Below are positions 47,783 to 60,620 of a stretch of DNA of 64,000 nt, piece after piece. Both the position numbers and the translations under genes were made by a program. The first letter of the stretch is position 1. Every line of letters starts with the position of its first letter. This DNA comes from Lysinibacillus sp. OF-1 (GTDB lineage: Bacteria; Bacillota; Bacilli; Bacillales_A; Planococcaceae). The DNA lies in the NCBI RefSeq assembly GCF_028356935.1, contig NZ_CP102798.1, positions 2,232,001 through 2,296,000 of the forward strand, read 5' to 3'. Below the pieces are notes generated by a model that made no database searches, was not told where the DNA came from, and saw only the letters and a program-made list of their open reading frames with translations.

Positions 47783-49264
47783 TTATGACAAAGCTATTGT
47801 TTTCGTTGCCACGGTTTGTTGAAAGGCTTGGTCATGCTCCACAAAAATCATTGTAGGATTAAAACTTTGAATAAGCTCTTCAATCTGCATGCGCGAATAA
47901 ATATCAATAAAATTTAAGGGTTCATCCCAAATATAGAGATGTGCTTTTTCACACAAACTTTTGGCAATCAACAGCTTTTTCTTTTGCCCACCTGAATAAT
48001 GTGAGATGTCTTTATCAAATTGAATCCGCTCAAAGTCCATCTTTCGCAGAATAGATTTAAATAACGTCTCATCTATAGCATGCTCTTCAATAAAATCCGA
48101 TAATGCTCCCTTCAAATGAGCAGTATCCTGTTGAACATAGGAGATAATAAGGCCAGCAGCTAAATGTATAGAGCCTGTATGCTGTATAGGCTTGCCAAGA
48201 AGCAGCTGTAGGATACTACTTTTTCCGCTTCCATTTTTGCCATCGAGAACAATGCGATCACCTTGCGCCACTTTGAAGCTAATAGGCTGATTCACAAAGT
48301 TGTCGTCATACTGAATTGATACATCCGTTACAACAACCATGTCTTTTGATGGAAATGCTAATGGTTGTACTTTTAAAGATTCCGTTTTTTCAACATTTTT
48401 TAGCAGTTTTGATTTTTCATGAATCGCTTTTTGCTGCCTAGATTCCAAGTTCTTTGCTCGCTTCATCATCTTGGCTGCTTTATGTCCAACAAAGCCTTTA
48501 TCTAGCTTAGAACCCGAATTCGTAGTTCCATTTTTGGAAGCCTCCACTTGATTAGACCAACCTACCGAACGCTTGGAAGACTGCGTTAAACGGTCGATAT
48601 CTTTTTGCAGACGTTGATTAGTTGCTTCTTCATGTTCCTGCTGTCGATCAAAATTTAACTTCCAAGTTGAGTAGTTACCACTTTGAACATCAATATTGGC
48701 TCTATTGATCGATAAAATATGATCAACACAGCCATCTAAAAAGGCTCTGTCATGCGAAATTAAAATAAATCCTTTTTTCTTGCGTAGATAATTAGAGATC
48801 GTCTTTCGTGCATCTGTATCGAGATGATTGGTTGGCTCATCAATTAATAGAAACTGTCCCTCTGTTAAAAAGAGCGCTGCAAGCAACACCTTTGTTTGCT
48901 CTCCATTAGATAATGTTTGAAAAGGGCGATACATGACCTCAGCATCGACATCTAGATAGGCTATTTCACGAATATATTCCCAATCTTCTGCCAGAGGGCA
49001 AATTTCTTCAAAAATTTCGTACGTATATTTATTTGGGTCTGAAACAGGATAGGGGAAATAAGTAAATTCTACTGAAGAAATGATGTTCCCACTATACTCA
49101 TAATTCCCTAATAGCAAATTAAAAAATGTTGTCTTCCCACGACCATTCCTACCGATAAATCCAAGTTTCCAATCTGTATCAATCTGAAAGTTGACACCCT
49201 CAAAAATATAATCAAAGCTGCTTGGGTAAGAAAACGTTAAGTCTTGTACTTGTATCATTGACAT
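47783..49264 (-). CDS. ABC-F ATPase, Lsa/Vga-type ribosome protection protein
   Basis: Twin-ABC protein without membrane segments, 493 residues. ABC1: GRNGRGKTT (38-46), LSNGE (118-122), LLIDEPTNHLD (139-149). A long basic linker (about 190-305) should reach the peptidyl-transferase centre. ABC2: GKNGSGKSS (342-350), YSGGQKKK, YIWDEPLNFID. The size and the absent C-terminal extension fit Lsa-type proteins that remove lincosamides, streptogramin A and pleuromutilins from ribosomes; the exact drug range is inference. The ATG at 49264 has AAAGGAGGAATT. Preceded by a two-step attenuator leader. Confidence 0.86.
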   Translation of the reverse strand: MSMIQVQDLTFSYPSSFDYIFEGVNFQIDTDWKLGFIGRNGRGKTTFFNLLLGNYEYSGNIISSVEFTYFPYPVSDPNKYTYEIFEEICPLAEDWEYIREIAYLDVDAEVMYRPFQTLSNGEQTKVLLAALFLTEGQFLLIDEPTNHLDTDARKTISNYLRKKKGFILISHDRAFLDGCVDHILSINRANIDVQSGNYSTWKLNFDRQQEHEEATNQRLQKDIDRLTQSSKRSVGWSNQVEASKNGTTNSGSKLDKGFVGHKAAKMMKRAKNLESRQQKAIHEKSKLLKNVEKTESLKVQPLAFPSKDMVVVTDVSIQYDDNFVNQPISFKVAQGDRIVLDGKNGSGKSSILQLLLGKPIQHTGSIHLAAGLIISYVQQDTAHLKGALSDFIEEHAIDETLFKSILRKMDFERIQFDKDISHYSGGQKKKLLIAKSLCEKAHLYIWDEPLNFIDIYSRMQIEELIQSFNPTMIFVEHDQAFQQTVATKTIALS

Positions 49265-49275
49265 GATAATTCCTC

Positions 49276-49310
49276 CTTTGTATAGCAAATCATTTTTCTT
49301 TTATACAAAG
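49276..49310 (-). promoter_or_regulatory. Ribosome-site-sequestering hairpin of the ABC-F gene
   Basis: On the minus strand CTTTGTATA (49310-49302) pairs perfectly with TATACAAAG (49284-49276), which runs straight into the GAGG of the ABC-F ribosome site. Upstream, CTCCGTATAAGT (inside leader peptide 2) pairs with ACTTATACGGAG, and CATCCATC with GATGGATG, giving alternative folds as in erm-type translational attenuation. Confidence 0.65.
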
Positions 49311-49357
49311 TCGGTACATCCATCTATGCTAAATTTCTCCGTATAAGTTGATGGATG

Positions 49358-49411
49358 CTAACGACTTATACGGAGCATCACATGCGTCACAATAGGTTCA
49401 GAATCGCTCAT
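49358..49411 (-). CDS. Leader peptide 2 (MSDSEPIVTHVMLRISR)
   Basis: 17 codons from the ATG at 49411 with AAAGGAGAG seven bases upstream. Its last codons contain the 5' arm of the CTCCGTATAAGT hairpin, so a ribosome stalled on this frame would change the downstream fold and expose the ABC-F ribosome site. Confidence 0.65.
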   Translation of the reverse strand: MSDSEPIVTHVMLRISR

Positions 49412-49472
49412 TTTTTTCTCTCCTTTATTAGGTAGATGAAAGATACAGAATAAACTATGAGAGCAAGAAAAA

Positions 49473-49593
49473 ATCCCCCCAATTGGATATTGGAAGGATT
49501 AGTCTCTCACTGAATAAACTTTATTTGCCAATGACATCATGACAAATAAACGCAAACTGATTGTTAAAAATGGATAGACTAATCCTATATTTT
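49473..49593 (-). promoter_or_regulatory. Transcription attenuator (terminator/antiterminator) of the ABC-F gene
   Basis: Terminator on the minus strand: ATCCTTCC (49499-49492) pairs with GGGGGGAT (49480-49473), then TTTTTTC. Antiterminator: AGGATTAGTCT (49586-49576) pairs with AGACTAATCCT (49505-49495) and so consumes the terminator's 5' arm. Anti-antiterminator: CTAATCTATATTTT in leader peptide 1 (49634-49621) pairs with AAAATATAGGATTAG (49593-49579). Stalling on leader 1 should permit read-through. Confidence 0.7.
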
Positions 49594-49613
49594 GTCGTTT
49601 GAAGTGATTCATT

Positions 49614-49649
49614 TCAAATAAAAATATAGATTAGTTCATCATTGTCCAT
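49614..49649 (-). CDS. Leader peptide 1 (MDNDELIYIFI)
   Basis: 11 codons from the ATG at 49649, with AGAGGA seven bases upstream and a promoter about 30 bases before. The second half of the frame forms segment 1 of the attenuator. The hydrophobic IYIFI end recalls macrolide-type stalling peptides only loosely. Confidence 0.6.
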   Translation of the reverse strand: MDNDELIYIFI

Positions 49650-49677
49650 TCATCAGTCCTCTCATAATTGTATTTTT

Positions 49678-49706
49678 ATAGTAACAAATTTTTTTATGGA
49701 ATACAA
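49678..49706 (-). promoter_or_regulatory. Promoter of the ABC-F leader transcript
   Basis: On the minus strand TTGTAT (49706-49701), a 17-base spacer and TACTAT (49683-49678); transcription should begin near 49671, giving a leader of about 400 bases. Confidence 0.6.
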
Positions 49707-49832
49707 TGTAGCCTTATCTTCTTAAACCAATCCCTACAATAATTATAGAAATAATTTAGATAATCGTATAAAAATTATTTCTACTATTCTGAAAGATATG
49801 TTATAGTAGGAGCATAATTGAATAATGTGTAA

Positions 49833-50025
49833 GAATTGGTGCCAAATGAAAGTTTGGCTTAAAAGGGAAGTCGGTGCAAATCCGACGCTGTCCCGCAACT
49901 GTTATTCGGAGCAAATCACAAAGGCCACTGGGAAACCGGGAAGGCTGTGAGGCGTGTTGATGAGAAGCCAGGAGACCTGCCAATTTCTAGTACACACCAA
50001 ATACCTACGTGGAAATAGGTGGTGA
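49833..50025 (+). promoter_or_regulatory. Cobalamin riboswitch 1 (metE)
   Basis: Adenosylcobalamin-type aptamer: GGGAAGTCGGTGCAAATCC, GACGCTGTCCCGCAACTGT, B12-box-like AGGCCACTG, and AGCCAGGAGACCTGCC, followed by the CCTACGTGGAAATAGG peripheral hairpin. It lies about 150 bases before metE and a terminator intervenes, so cobalamin should terminate transcription. Confidence 0.94.
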
Positions 50026-50177: not shown

Positions 50178-52475
50178 ATGACCTATACAAGCACACTCAT
50201 TGGTTACCCGTATATCGGGGAAGATCGCGAATGGAAAAAAGCATTAGAAGCATTTTGGCGCAACGAGCTTTCTGAAGAGGATTTTGAGGATAGTTTAAAA
50301 AAAATCCGTTTAGCTAGAATTGACAAGCAGCTACAGCTTGGCATCGACATGGTGACAGTTGGCGATTTTACGTATTACGATAGAATGTTAGATACAGCAT
50401 TAATGTTTGGTCTCATCCCAAAACGCTTTAACTGGCAGGGAGGGAAAGTAGATTTATCTACCTACTACAGCGTAGCAAGAGGGAATAAAACAGCTGTAGC
50501 TAGTGAGATGACAAAATGGTTTAATACAAACTATCACTATATTGTTCCTGAATACGAGGGACAGGCCTTGAAACTAACAGAAAATAAAGTGTTGGCCGAT
50601 TTCTTAGAGGCGAAAGAAACGTACGGTATTATTGCAAAGCCAACATTGATTGGTCCCTATACATTCTGCAAGTTAACAAAAGGCTATAGCAAATTCACAC
50701 AGGTTGAATACTTATTAGCTCTAATACCGCTCTATACACAAGTATTAAAAGAATTAGTAGATGCAGGTGCAAATTGGATTCAACTAGAAGAGCCATCACT
50801 TGTCACAACCCTTGATCCAGCAGACATCAAGCTTGTGCAAGAGATTTACGACCAGTTAGCCGTTGCGGTTCCAGAAGCGAAAATCATGCTGCAAACTTAT
50901 TTTGAAGCATTATGCAACTATGAAACATTGATTACATTGCCTGTAGAAGGATTTGGCCTAGACTTTGTTCATGGCTATAAAGGAAATATGGCGTCACTTC
51001 GTCAATATGGTTTCCCTCAGGACAAAGTATTGGCAGTCGGGGTTGTTAATGGACGTGATATTTGGCGTTCCAACTTAGCGGAGGTCAATGCTACAATTCA
51101 GGCAATTGAGCATTTAAGTAATGCAGCAGAGCTATGGATTCAACCATCCAGCAATCTACAACATGTACCGATCACAACTGCTCTTGAAAATGAGATTGAC
51201 CCTGTTCTGAAGCATGCCTTAGCCTTCGCAGATGAAAAGATTGTAGAAATCACGGAGCTAACTAAATGTAGACGAGATACAGAGGGTATCTTACAGCATA
51301 ATTTTTCTGAAAGTATGAAGGCAATTGAGGCTCTAAAAAACCATCCAATCCGTCAAAACAAGTTGATCCATCAAGCAGTTCAAACTGTGACAACGCAAGA
51401 TTTTGAACGACATAGTGAATTTGCTCAGCGTCAAAAGATGCAGCAGCAAGCGTTAGCGTTACCGCTATTCCCAACAACAACAATCGGAAGCTTCCCACAA
51501 TCTGATGAGGTGAAAAGGAATCGTAATGCTTGGCGTAAAAAACAATTATCGAATGAAGCCTATGAGGCATTTATAGAGCAGGAAACAAAACGCTGGATTA
51601 CGATACAAGAGGAACTAGATATCGATGTACTCGTTCACGGTGAATTTGAGCGTACAGACATGGTCGAATACTTTGGTGAAAAGCTGACTGGCTTTGCCTT
51701 TACAAAAAAAGCATGGGTCGTTTCCTATGGCTCACGCTGTGTCAAGCCACCGATCATTTATGGAGATGTTGCGTGGTCTTCAGCAATAACTGTAAAAGAG
51801 TCAGCCTATGCTCAAAGCTTAACAAAGCGCTTTGTAAAAGGTATGCTGACAGGACCAGTGACGATATTAAATTGGTCCTTTGTACGAGACGATCTGTCAC
51901 GTAAAGATGTCGCTTATCAAATTGCATTAGCACTTCGCAAAGAGGTTGAGGCACTCGAAAACGCAGGTATTTCAATTATTCAAGTGGATGAGCCAGCTCT
52001 AAGAGAAGGTTTACCGCTACGAAAAGAAGAATGGGGAGCTTACTTAGAATGGGCTGTTAATTCCTTTAAGCTGGCTACAGCTAGTGTCAAAGATGAAACA
52101 CAAATCCATACACATATGTGCTACTGCGAATTTAACGATTTCATCGAACCGATTAGTGCACTTGATGCAGACGTGATTTCCATTGAAACATCAAGAAGTC
52201 ACGGGGAGCTCATTACATCACTGCAAGGGCAACCTTATCAAAAGGGCATTGGCTTAGGCGTTTATGATATTCATAGTCCTCGTGTGCCAAGCAATGAAGA
52301 AATGCTAACTATTATGAGAGATAGTTTACAGGTGTTAGATTCCCATCAATTTTGGGTGAACCCAGATTGTGGTTTAAAAACAAGAAAAGAAACTGAAACT
52401 GTTGCAGCTTTGGCTAATATGGTTGCTGCAACGAAAACATTACGCCAGGAAGTACAACAATCTATCTCGAGATAA
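50178..52475 (+). CDS. metE: Cobalamin-independent methionine synthase
   Basis: MetE transfers methyl from 5-methyltetrahydropteroyl-polyglutamate to homocysteine without B12. 765 residues, two fused barrels; the zinc site is visible in HTHMCYCEF (His and Cys) and the C-terminal NPDCGLKTR Cys, with the conserved SFPQSDEVKRNR and HGEFERTDMVEYFG segments at the start of the second barrel. AAAAGGAG lies upstream of the ATG. The B12 riboswitch should silence it when cobalamin allows MetH to work; no metH is in the window. Confidence 0.97.
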   Translation: MTYTSTLIGYPYIGEDREWKKALEAFWRNELSEEDFEDSLKKIRLARIDKQLQLGIDMVTVGDFTYYDRMLDTALMFGLIPKRFNWQGGKVDLSTYYSVARGNKTAVASEMTKWFNTNYHYIVPEYEGQALKLTENKVLADFLEAKETYGIIAKPTLIGPYTFCKLTKGYSKFTQVEYLLALIPLYTQVLKELVDAGANWIQLEEPSLVTTLDPADIKLVQEIYDQLAVAVPEAKIMLQTYFEALCNYETLITLPVEGFGLDFVHGYKGNMASLRQYGFPQDKVLAVGVVNGRDIWRSNLAEVNATIQAIEHLSNAAELWIQPSSNLQHVPITTALENEIDPVLKHALAFADEKIVEITELTKCRRDTEGILQHNFSESMKAIEALKNHPIRQNKLIHQAVQTVTTQDFERHSEFAQRQKMQQQALALPLFPTTTIGSFPQSDEVKRNRNAWRKKQLSNEAYEAFIEQETKRWITIQEELDIDVLVHGEFERTDMVEYFGEKLTGFAFTKKAWVVSYGSRCVKPPIIYGDVAWSSAITVKESAYAQSLTKRFVKGMLTGPVTILNWSFVRDDLSRKDVAYQIALALRKEVEALENAGISIIQVDEPALREGLPLRKEEWGAYLEWAVNSFKLATASVKDETQIHTHMCYCEFNDFIEPISALDADVISIETSRSHGELITSLQGQPYQKGIGLGVYDIHSPRVPSNEEMLTIMRDSLQVLDSHQFWVNPDCGLKTRKETETVAALANMVAATKTLRQEVQQSISR

Positions 52476-52566: not shown

Positions 52567-52664
52567 TTTCATTCTTTTAAGATTTTTATTATATTCAGAA
52601 AATAAAATTGACGTGAACAATCGAGCATGTTATGTTTATAACGAATTTCATAGCGATCATTACA

Positions 52665-52870
52665 AGTTTGAGTGAAAAAGACTTTCATTCAATTAAAAGG
52701 AAAATGGGTGTAAATCCCATGCTGTCCCGCAGCTGTAAATGAGGAGTTTTGTTTCAAATACCACTAAGTGATTACTTGGGAAGGTGAAGCAAAATCATGA
52801 TTCATGAGCCAGAATGCCTGCTTGTAAGGAGATTCATTGATGATCTACGAAAGATAGGGAGATGGATGGA
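52665..52870 (+). promoter_or_regulatory. Cobalamin riboswitch 2 (metal/peptide ABC transporter)
   Basis: AAAAGGAAAATGGGTGTAAA, then CCCATGCTGTCCCGCAGCTGT, a B12-box-like ACCACTAAG and GAGCCAGAATGCCTGC, ending in a CTACGAAAGATAGGGAG peripheral hairpin. Core positions match riboswitches 1 and 3, with a slightly diverged 3' part. Confidence 0.88.
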
Positions 52871-60144: not shown

Positions 60145-60402
60145 ATGTGCTCCTCCTCTATATTATAAAAAAACTATTCGCCTTTTTTATTATAAAGACC
60201 TCTATTTTACTTATAACCCTTGAAAATGGATTTATTGGTATAGATGAACAATCTTTTTTTGTACAAAATAATGCTCAAAAATGCAGAATAGTCAATCAAA
60301 AATGAAAAATAGCTTTTTATAATCAGTCTTTTCTGAATTTTACCTATATTGATTGTTTTGAAAACTCTATGTTAAGGTAAATAGACAAATTGAATATGCT
60401 AA

Positions 60403-60620
60403 ATTTTGGTGGTTCAAATGGGGTTCATTCCATTTGATTAAAAGGGAAGTTGGTGAGAGTCCAACACTGTCCCGCAACTGTATTTAGGAGCTCGATAACA
60501 AGGCCACTGTTTTGTTTGTCAAAATGGGAAGGTGTTATTGAAGTGTTGATTATAAGTCAGGAGACCTGCCACAAAATAAGCATCAATTGACCTACGAGGA
60601 TAGGGAGGTGTTAGCTACTG
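60403..60620 (+). promoter_or_regulatory. Cobalamin riboswitch 3 (methylcitrate cycle operon)
   Basis: AAAAGGGAAGTTGGTGAGAG, then CCAACACTGTCCCGCAACTGT, AGGCCACTG, and AAGTCAGGAGACCTGCC with a CCTACGAGGATAGGGAGG peripheral hairpin. All invariant segments of the B12 aptamer are present, and a terminator follows before prpC. Confidence 0.94.

What the first reader, a model, noticed from the sequence alone, without database searches (positions are those of the whole stretch)
49276..49706. Two-leader-peptide, transcription-plus-translation attenuator before an ABC-F resistance gene
The minus-strand leader holds a promoter, an 11-codon leader frame with its own ribosome site, and mutually exclusive anti-antiterminator, antiterminator and terminator pairings. 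It then holds a second 17-codon leader frame and a hairpin that hides part of the ABC-F ribosome site. Single-step attenuation is known for vmlR and erm-type genes; a serial two-step version is unusual.
Basis: partly seen in the sequence, partly recalled or inferred. Interest (0 to 1): 0.8.

Follow-up and report, generated by a model that had tools for sequence, protein, structure and literature searches.

The report
Two stacked antibiotic-sensing RNA switches
In front of a Lysinibacillus gene of a ribosome-protection resistance family lie two stacked, conserved RNA elements, each with its own tiny leader frame, which are predicted to act as switches that let first the messenger RNA and then the protein be made only when an antibiotic stalls ribosomes.

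Summary
The leader of an Lsa-family ABC-F gene (47783-49264, minus) has two separable modules. Module 1 (49467-49675) is Rfam RF02452/ncr1575 (143.8 bits); its consensus holds the MIN leader frame proved in Bacillus subtilis vmlR. Module 2 (49268-49426) has no Rfam match. It has a 17-codon leader with conserved Val-Thr-His and two competing helix sets, each 98.3% paired over 41 Bacillales sequences; in 8 Clostridia rows a different helix replaces helix B. All 34 loci with strong model hits precede lsa. A plasmid search found module 2 before lsa(B) too. Nascent-RNA folding predicts a switch when a ribosome stalls near V-T-H; full-length folding shows only a weak effect. At least two other terminator types replace module 1 elsewhere, so the stages look like independent units. 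Two leaders serving a transcription stage and then a translation stage is best called a new variant of known ABC-F attenuation. Induction, stalling and inducing drugs are untested.

The parts
49678..49706 (-). possible promoter TTGTAT-17-TACTAT (weak)
   Evidence: sequence reading only; not listed by the consensus scan
49657..49663 (-). GAGAGGA, likely ribosome site of leader 1
   Evidence: like the SD mapped by toeprint in vmlR, AGAAGGG (PMC9226507 section 23); coordinates
49631..49642 (-). leader frame 1, Met-Met-Asn-stop (vmlR MIN position)
   Evidence: tripeptide in 62 of 62 copies, MxN in 60
   Evidence: open in 15 of 62 copies
49578..49635 (-). core of anti-antiterminator hairpin
   Evidence: 95.2% of cells paired, 30 sequences
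49496..49585 (-). antiterminator: 49576-49585 pairs with 49496-49505
   Evidence: 96.0% of cells paired, no double changes
49467..49500 (-). intrinsic terminator hairpin (49472-49500) and U run
49467..49675 (-). module 1, RF02452 (ncr1575), vmlR-type attenuator
   Evidence: 143.8 bits
49420..49426 (-). AAAGGAG, likely ribosome site of leader 2
   Evidence: sequence, alignment A2
49358..49411 (-). leader frame 2, MSDSEPIVTHVMLRISR-stop
   Evidence: homologous frame in 49 aligned rows
49382..49390 (-). Val-Thr-His codons, proposed stall site
   Evidence: V 47, T 48, H 49 of 49, with silent changes
49337..49375 (-). helix A (OFF): 49364-49375 with 49337-49348
   Evidence: 98.7% of cells paired, 41 sequences
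49276..49310 (-). helix C (OFF): 49302-49310 with 49276-49284, covers part of the lsa ribosome site
   Evidence: 97.8% of cells; GC to UA on both sides in 7 sequences
49308..49367 (-). helix D (ON): 49362-49367 with 49308-49313
   Evidence: 99.6% of cells paired
49317..49357 (-). helix B (ON): 49350-49357 with 49317-49324
   Evidence: 97.2% of cells, two pairs with double changes; a different helix, GGUGA with UCACC, in Clostridia
49255..49323 (-). possible third small frame MDVPTLYKRKMICYTKEELSCQ overlapping the lsa start
   Evidence: an ATG here in 41 of 41 Bacillales rows, 0 of 8 Clostridia; peptide not conserved
49272..49279 (-). AAAGGAGG, lsa ribosome site
   Evidence: sequence
47783..49264 (-). 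Lsa-family ABC-F ribosomal protection gene
   Evidence: NF000167 798.5 bits, cut-off 750; Lsa(A) 7nhk E 1.5e-126

Best explanation
The leader carries two conserved RNA modules in series, likely working as two checkpoints: a vmlR-type module predicted to stop transcription unless a drug holds a ribosome on a Met-x-Asn tripeptide, then a module predicted to hide the lsa ribosome site unless a ribosome stalls at Val-Thr-His in a second leader peptide. Shown by sequence: both modules, both leader frames and two competing sets of pairings in each; in module 2 these carry compensating changes, in module 1 they are mostly invariant. Inferred for stage 1: an initiating ribosome arrested on leader 1 stops the anti-antiterminator, the antiterminator forms and polymerase reads through (transferred from vmlR, where it was tested). 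Inferred for stage 2: with no stall, helices A and C form, or a ribosome at the leader-2 stop covers arm D, and lsa is poorly translated. A ribosome held with V, T or H in the P site covers the start of helix A but leaves arm D free. Helices D and B would then form on the nascent RNA, take up the 5' arm of helix C, and leave the lsa ribosome site open.
For: RF02452 match. A second copy in the same genome precedes a VmlR/ExpZ homologue (6ha8, E 4.8e-195) and the genome has only one module-2 match, the window's. MxN tripeptide 60 of 62. OFF and ON helices each 98.3% paired in 41 sequences; covariation score reached by 0 and 1 of 500 shuffles; slid controls 18-61% paired. V-T-H kept with silent changes; D or E three codons before V in 49 of 49, by all four codons. 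The LRIS codons after it are kept as RNA rather than peptide: L036 and L039 lack one base there, so the frame differs while the helix stays. Nascent-RNA folding: helix D above 0.5 in 44 of 44 sequences when the first free base is +3 to +8 of helix A, in 23-32 of 44 at -6 to 0, in none from +13; with a footprint reaching 15-16 nt past the first P-site base this is P site on V, T, H or the next codon. 34 of 34 loci with E below 1e-8 precede lsa. A terminator lies 44-134 nt before the V codon in 45 of 57 module-2 loci (39 of 51 distinct), against 7 of 228 shuffles, and is of at least three kinds.
Against: No expression, toeprint or induction data. In full-length RNA at equilibrium helix C stays dominant: mean probability 0.84 with the boundary before helix A, 0.68 at lowest, and 0.87 at lowest in the window itself, so the ON state must be kinetic. 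The minimum-energy fold of module 2 holds helix A but not C; only the centroid shows both. With the boundary before helix A, helix D already competes with A in about half of the nascent sequences (5 of 49 rows dropped by a pattern failure). Module 1 covariation is weak: AAT 151, AT 500, terminator 50 of 500 shuffles reach the score. 12 of 57 module-2 loci show no terminator by my rule. In the 8 Clostridia rows nothing covaries and helix D pairs in 86.3% of cells. No promoter support. That the ON window meets V-T-H by chance was not tested.
Confidence: 0.65

Rival explanations
1. One working stage: module 1 alone controls lsa as in vmlR, and module 2 is a passive brake that hides the ribosome site in read-through RNA, like SL-4 of vmlR; leader 2 is not a sensor.
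For: vmlR and cplR combine both levels with one leader (PMC9226507 section 18; PMC10201436 passages). Helix C dominates at equilibrium.
Against: The V-T-H peptide is kept in 49 rows of Bacillales and Clostridia with silent changes; module 2 occurs without a found module 1, in three loci right behind a cfr-like gene.
Confidence: 0.17
2. Module 2 works by translational coupling through a third small frame (49255-49323): opening helix A frees its ribosome site, and its translation opens helix C.
For: An ATG in helix B of 41 of 41 Bacillales rows; 40 of 41 frames run through the 5' arm of helix C.
Against: Absent in 8 of 8 Clostridia rows that keep the rest; peptide and frame not conserved; GGAG lies 13 nt before the ATG in the window.
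Confidence: 0.1
3. Leader 2 senses amino-acid shortage (Thr or His) or slow translation in general, not a bound drug.
For: Conserved Thr-His codons; VmlR is induced by compromised protein synthesis (PMC9226507 abstract).
Against: Single codons, not runs; strong hits always before a resistance-family gene.
Confidence: 0.05
4. Module 2 is a decaying remnant or an RNA protein-binding site without regulatory stalling.
For: It is decayed before lsa(E) and not found in 24 of 80 lsa loci.
Against: Conservation, compensating changes, and 6-nt spacing from His to helix A in 56 of 58 frames.
Confidence: 0.03

Closest known systems
vmlR leader of Bacillus subtilis (Takada 2022, PMC9226507)
   Same: Module 1: MxN tripeptide at the same place, AAT/AT/terminator; vmlR also hides its ribosome site (SL-4)
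   Different: vmlR has one leader frame; here a second leader with its own conserved peptide and its own competing helices follows the terminator
cplR leader of Clostridioides difficile (Obana 2023, PMC10201436, passages)
   Same: Transcription and translation attenuation act together
   Different: One MRI leader; the terminator itself hides the ribosome site
lsa(A) leader of Enterococcus faecalis (same paper, passage)
   Same: Lsa-family gene with a short leader
   Different: Reported leader is MAGN; no V-T-H second leader in the passages seen
are5sc and tiaA leaders of Streptomyces (PMC12421871, passages)
   Same: ABC-F genes with short leaders; are5sc has two predicted overlapping leaders
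   Different: Only one of the two was translated in toeprints; no serial second stage in the passages seen
ermC translational attenuator (passage in PMC10219788; details recalled)
   Same: Stall on a leader peptide frees a hidden ribosome site
   Different: One stage; other peptide; other helices
ermA leader with two peptides (recalled, no call)
   Same: Two leader peptides in series
   Different: Recalled as translational only, without a terminator stage

Membership tests
RF02452 ncr1575 | covariance score over the gathering cut-off, full length | tested here: met
   143.8 against 60, positions 1-212
vmlR-type transcription attenuator | MxN-like tripeptide leader in the AAT region | tested here: met
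   MMN at 49631-49642; MxN in 60 of 62
vmlR-type transcription attenuator | mutually exclusive AAT, AT and terminator | tested here: met
   95-98% of cells paired; AT without double changes
vmlR-type transcription attenuator | antibiotic-dependent read-through | not testable with these tools
   needs a bench test
vmlR-type transcription attenuator | NusG-dependent pause | not tested
   -
translation attenuator (ermC-like in action) | leader frame with ribosome site before a helix that hides the gene's ribosome site | tested here: met
translation attenuator (ermC-like in action) | alternative pairing that frees the site | tested here: inconclusive
   D and B helices are conserved, but win only on nascent RNA, not in the full-length RNA
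translation attenuator (ermC-like in action) | drug-dependent stalling at a set codon | not testable with these tools
   only predicted
Lsa family ABC-F | NCBIfam NF000167 over cut-off | tested here: met
   798.5 against 750

The most novel reading that the evidence does not exclude
A modular two-input gate for drug resistance in Bacillota: stage 1 reads drugs that freeze initiating ribosomes (its leader needs little more than a start codon, and is AUG-UAA in three Paenibacillus) at the level of transcription, and stage 2 reads drugs that freeze elongating ribosomes on a new arrest peptide, [D/E]-x-x-V-T-H, at the level of translation. Different first stages have been plugged onto the same second stage, and the cassette has travelled with lsa(B) on plasmids of clinical staphylococci.
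Probability: 0.4. Interest if true: 0.77.

Novelty: new variant of a known kind. Interest (0 to 1): 0.6.

Why it matters
If true, one resistance gene checks for two kinds of ribosome arrest before it is expressed, which would explain tight control and predicts which drugs or mixtures induce it. V-T-H would be a new context-specific arrest motif to test. Thr as penultimate residue with His in the P site would fit the reported weaker preference of chloramphenicol and linezolid for Ser or Thr, after Ala, at that place (PMC8987054 passages), although lsa(B) is listed for lincosamides, streptogramins and pleuromutilins. It also shows that an Rfam entry filed as an sRNA looks like an attenuator leader.

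Tried and rejected
The 11-codon first leader was rejected: not conserved. A strong promoter was not supported. Thermodynamic switching of the full-length RNA was tested and is weak, so I rely on nascent folding. A peptide-coding third frame was tested and not supported by conservation. The joint alignment with Clostridia misplaced helix B, so the groups were counted apart. The first module-1 counts used one row, L157, cut at wrong coordinates; I repeated them with the right ones, and the report gives the repeat. Literature: six leader-peptide strings found no relevant paper (five unrelated hits on the two shortest strings). Searches on lsa with attenuation, lsa with cfr and leader peptide, two leader peptides, and ncr1575 listed nothing that names module 2 (listings only, apart from papers named in the report). 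The library lacks most subscription papers, so this is not proof of absence.

Full report
What the gene is. The window lies in a Lysinibacillus chromosome (G000, 4.71 Mb); the closest named relative found, L. fusiformis Juneja 3, has an ABC-F 99% identical. The gene at 47783-49264 (minus) passes the NCBIfam Lsa cut-off, 798.5 against 750, and its best solved relative is Lsa(A) (7nhk).

Module 1. The leader 49467-49675 matches Rfam RF02452, ncr1575, at 143.8 bits against a cut-off of 60. Rfam files it as a Bacillus sRNA. Its consensus holds AUG-AUU-AAC-UAA, the MIN leader frame that Takada et al. proved in vmlR by toeprint and by start-codon and SD mutations (PMC9226507; abstract, sections 18 and 23 and some passages read). 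All 32 Lysinibacillus genomes searched have at least one match over the cut-off, and B. subtilis is the only one of 14 control genomes that rings. The second full match of the window's own genome (C1:4389794-4390055) precedes a VmlR/ExpZ homologue (6ha8, E 4.8e-195), and the genome's only module-2 match is the window's. So module 1 is a vmlR-type attenuator that lsa also uses.

The first leader frame. In 62 copies (30 lsa loci, 30 genus loci, 2 plasmids; rows overlap) a tripeptide frame stands at the MIN position in all 62, MxN in 60; exceptions are MIQ in L019 and MIY in L111. The window has MMN. MDN and MDK variants work in vmlR (PMC9226507 section 23). AAT, AT and terminator pair in 95.2, 96.0 and 98.0% of cells in 30 sequences (29 lsa leaders, the window among them, and the vmlR leader L157; the near-copies L001 and L006 left out). 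AAT has three pairs and the terminator one pair changed on both sides, AT none; covariation is weak because most pairs do not vary.

Module 2. A second frame, MSDSEPIVTHVMLRISR, follows the terminator; no Rfam match up to E 1 covers 49262-49432. Homologous frames were read in 58 of 84 loci by a first pattern. It missed L007 and L044 (IITH, VITH), which were added by hand. After leaving out identical rows, L001 (near-copy of the window) and three short forms (L011, L018, L028), 49 rows remained, 41 Bacillales and 8 Clostridia. Codon counts over the 49: V 47 and I 2; T 48 and V 1; H 49; D or E three codons before V in 49, written with four codons. Silent positions vary (ACG 28, ACA 20), while other codons nearer the start change freely. 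His to helix A is 6 nt in 56 of 58 frames, 5 in L036 and L039, where the frame after VTH differs but the helix stays. The peptide is thus conserved up to VTH, and the RNA after it.

Competing structures. OFF: helices A and C, 98.3% of 820 cells paired. ON: helices D and B, 98.3% of 533 cells. Slid controls give 18-61%. The covariation score is reached by 0 of 500 shuffles (OFF) and 1 of 500 (ON); the shuffles ignore relatedness, as the tool states, and the count of pairs with double changes is not beyond shuffles (97 and 69 of 500). Compensations: helix C GC to UA in 7 sequences, helix A CG to UA in L114, helix B CG to UA in 2 and AU to CG in 2. In Clostridia helix B is a different helix (GGUGA with UCACC) and helix D is GUCGG with CCGAC; pairing is 92.9% ON and 94.4% OFF, but the eight rows are too alike to show covariation. 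In the short forms, and in L124, helix A itself hides the lsa ribosome site.

How the switch could work. With full-length RNA at equilibrium a stall has a small effect: mean helix C probability falls from 0.84 to 0.69-0.68 when the first free base is +3 or +4 of helix A, and from 0.99 to 0.91-0.87 in the window. On nascent RNA ending before the 3' arm of helix C the effect is sharp: helix D exceeds 0.5 in 44 of 44 sequences for a first free base of +3 to +8, in 23-32 of 44 for -6 to 0, and in none from +13 (five of 49 rows skipped by a pattern failure). With a footprint reaching 15-16 nt past the first P-site base, the ON window means V, T, H or the next codon in the P site, which is where the peptide is conserved. 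A ribosome at the leader stop would cover arm D and favour OFF. This geometry is inference, and its chance level was not tested.

Distribution. A covariance model of module 2 (R1) hit 15 of 398 genomes of the class and 32 of 200 of the family at E up to 0.001 (the sets overlap; strict filters). Of 42 loci examined, 37 have lsa downstream, and all 34 with E below 1e-8 do, L152 with a shortened match. The five without lsa are weak hits (L126, L129, L153, L155, L156; L153 lies at a contig end). Plasmids: 11 of 72,556 records match; four were read. L111, L112 and L113 (Lysinibacillus capsici, Staphylococcus epidermidis, Enterococcus hirae) carry lsa(B) predictions, in two pieces in L111, and have both the tripeptide-terminator leader (read by eye and, for L111; not scanned with Rfam) and module 2; L114 is Priestia. 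Before an lsa 62% identical the first stage is MYNFSC and module 2 is decayed; 109 plasmid records match that stretch, and the 15 listed are annotated lsa(E).

Independent stages. In 82 loci (80 lsa loci and two plasmids): RF02452 with long module 2, 25; with short, 2; RF02452 alone, 3; NFSC-type leader with module 2, 10; NFSC alone, 17; module 2 without either label, 19 (18 long, 1 short); neither, 4; plasmids with tripeptide and module 2, 2 (20 of the 80 loci were not scanned with Rfam). Looking at eleven of the unlabelled loci, some have diverged ncr1575 (L027, L035, L036), others the AAGAAAG/CUUUCUU terminator type (L030, L039, L042, L044) or a third type (L031), and three show none to my eye (L041, L048, L051). 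A terminator by my folding rule stands 44-134 nt before the V codon in 45 of 57 loci, 39 of 51 distinct ones, against 7 of 228 dinucleotide shuffles; 12 have none found, including L032, which does match RF02452. Exchange of first stages on a constant second stage argues that the two are separate working units.

What is new. Dual control with one leader is published for vmlR and cplR (PMC9226507; PMC10201436, passages only). Two overlapping leaders are reported in Streptomyces are5sc, of which one is translated (PMC12421871, passages). My searches found no description of module 2. I call the system a new variant of a known kind.

Noticed in passing
L030, L039, L044: In three Paenibacillus (of five loci looked at) the first-stage leader is an AUG directly followed by UAA before a TTCTTGC element, a start-stop frame, which suggests that stage 1 needs only an initiating ribosome.
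   Followed up: partly
27 of 80 lsa loci, and L127, L128, L154: Clostridial lsa genes and an lsa(E)-like gene carry a different first-stage leader, M-x-N-F-S-C or similar, mostly with a CTTTCTTG-type terminator; it shares M-x-N with the vmlR tripeptide.
   Followed up: partly
L031, L020, L045 upstream of lsa: A third first-stage leader type, MLTVFGIMFGG-like, with an ACCGAT/ATCGGT terminator (L020 and L045 read by eye).
   Followed up: no
L004-L006, L010, L022, L026, L029, L034: A gene whose C-terminus looks like Cfr/RlmN (recalled motif DIDAACGQLY) ends just before the lsa leader; in L026, L029 and L034 module 2 follows it directly.
   Followed up: partly
window 49255-49323 (-): Possible third small frame starting inside helix B and overlapping the lsa start; an ATG in 41 of 41 Bacillales rows, fused in frame to lsa in 5.
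   Followed up: yes
Rfam RF02452: Filed as an sRNA gene although it looks like the vmlR-type attenuator leader.
   Followed up: yes
window 49820-49998, 52647-52839, 60393-60587 (+): Three cobalamin riboswitches in the window; the first faces away from the lsa leader and precedes a metE-like gene at 50178-52475 (name recalled).
   Followed up: no
L152 upstream of lsa: About 100 extra bases sit inside module 2 between helix A and helix B, and the best lsa match there covers only 194 residues.
   Followed up: no
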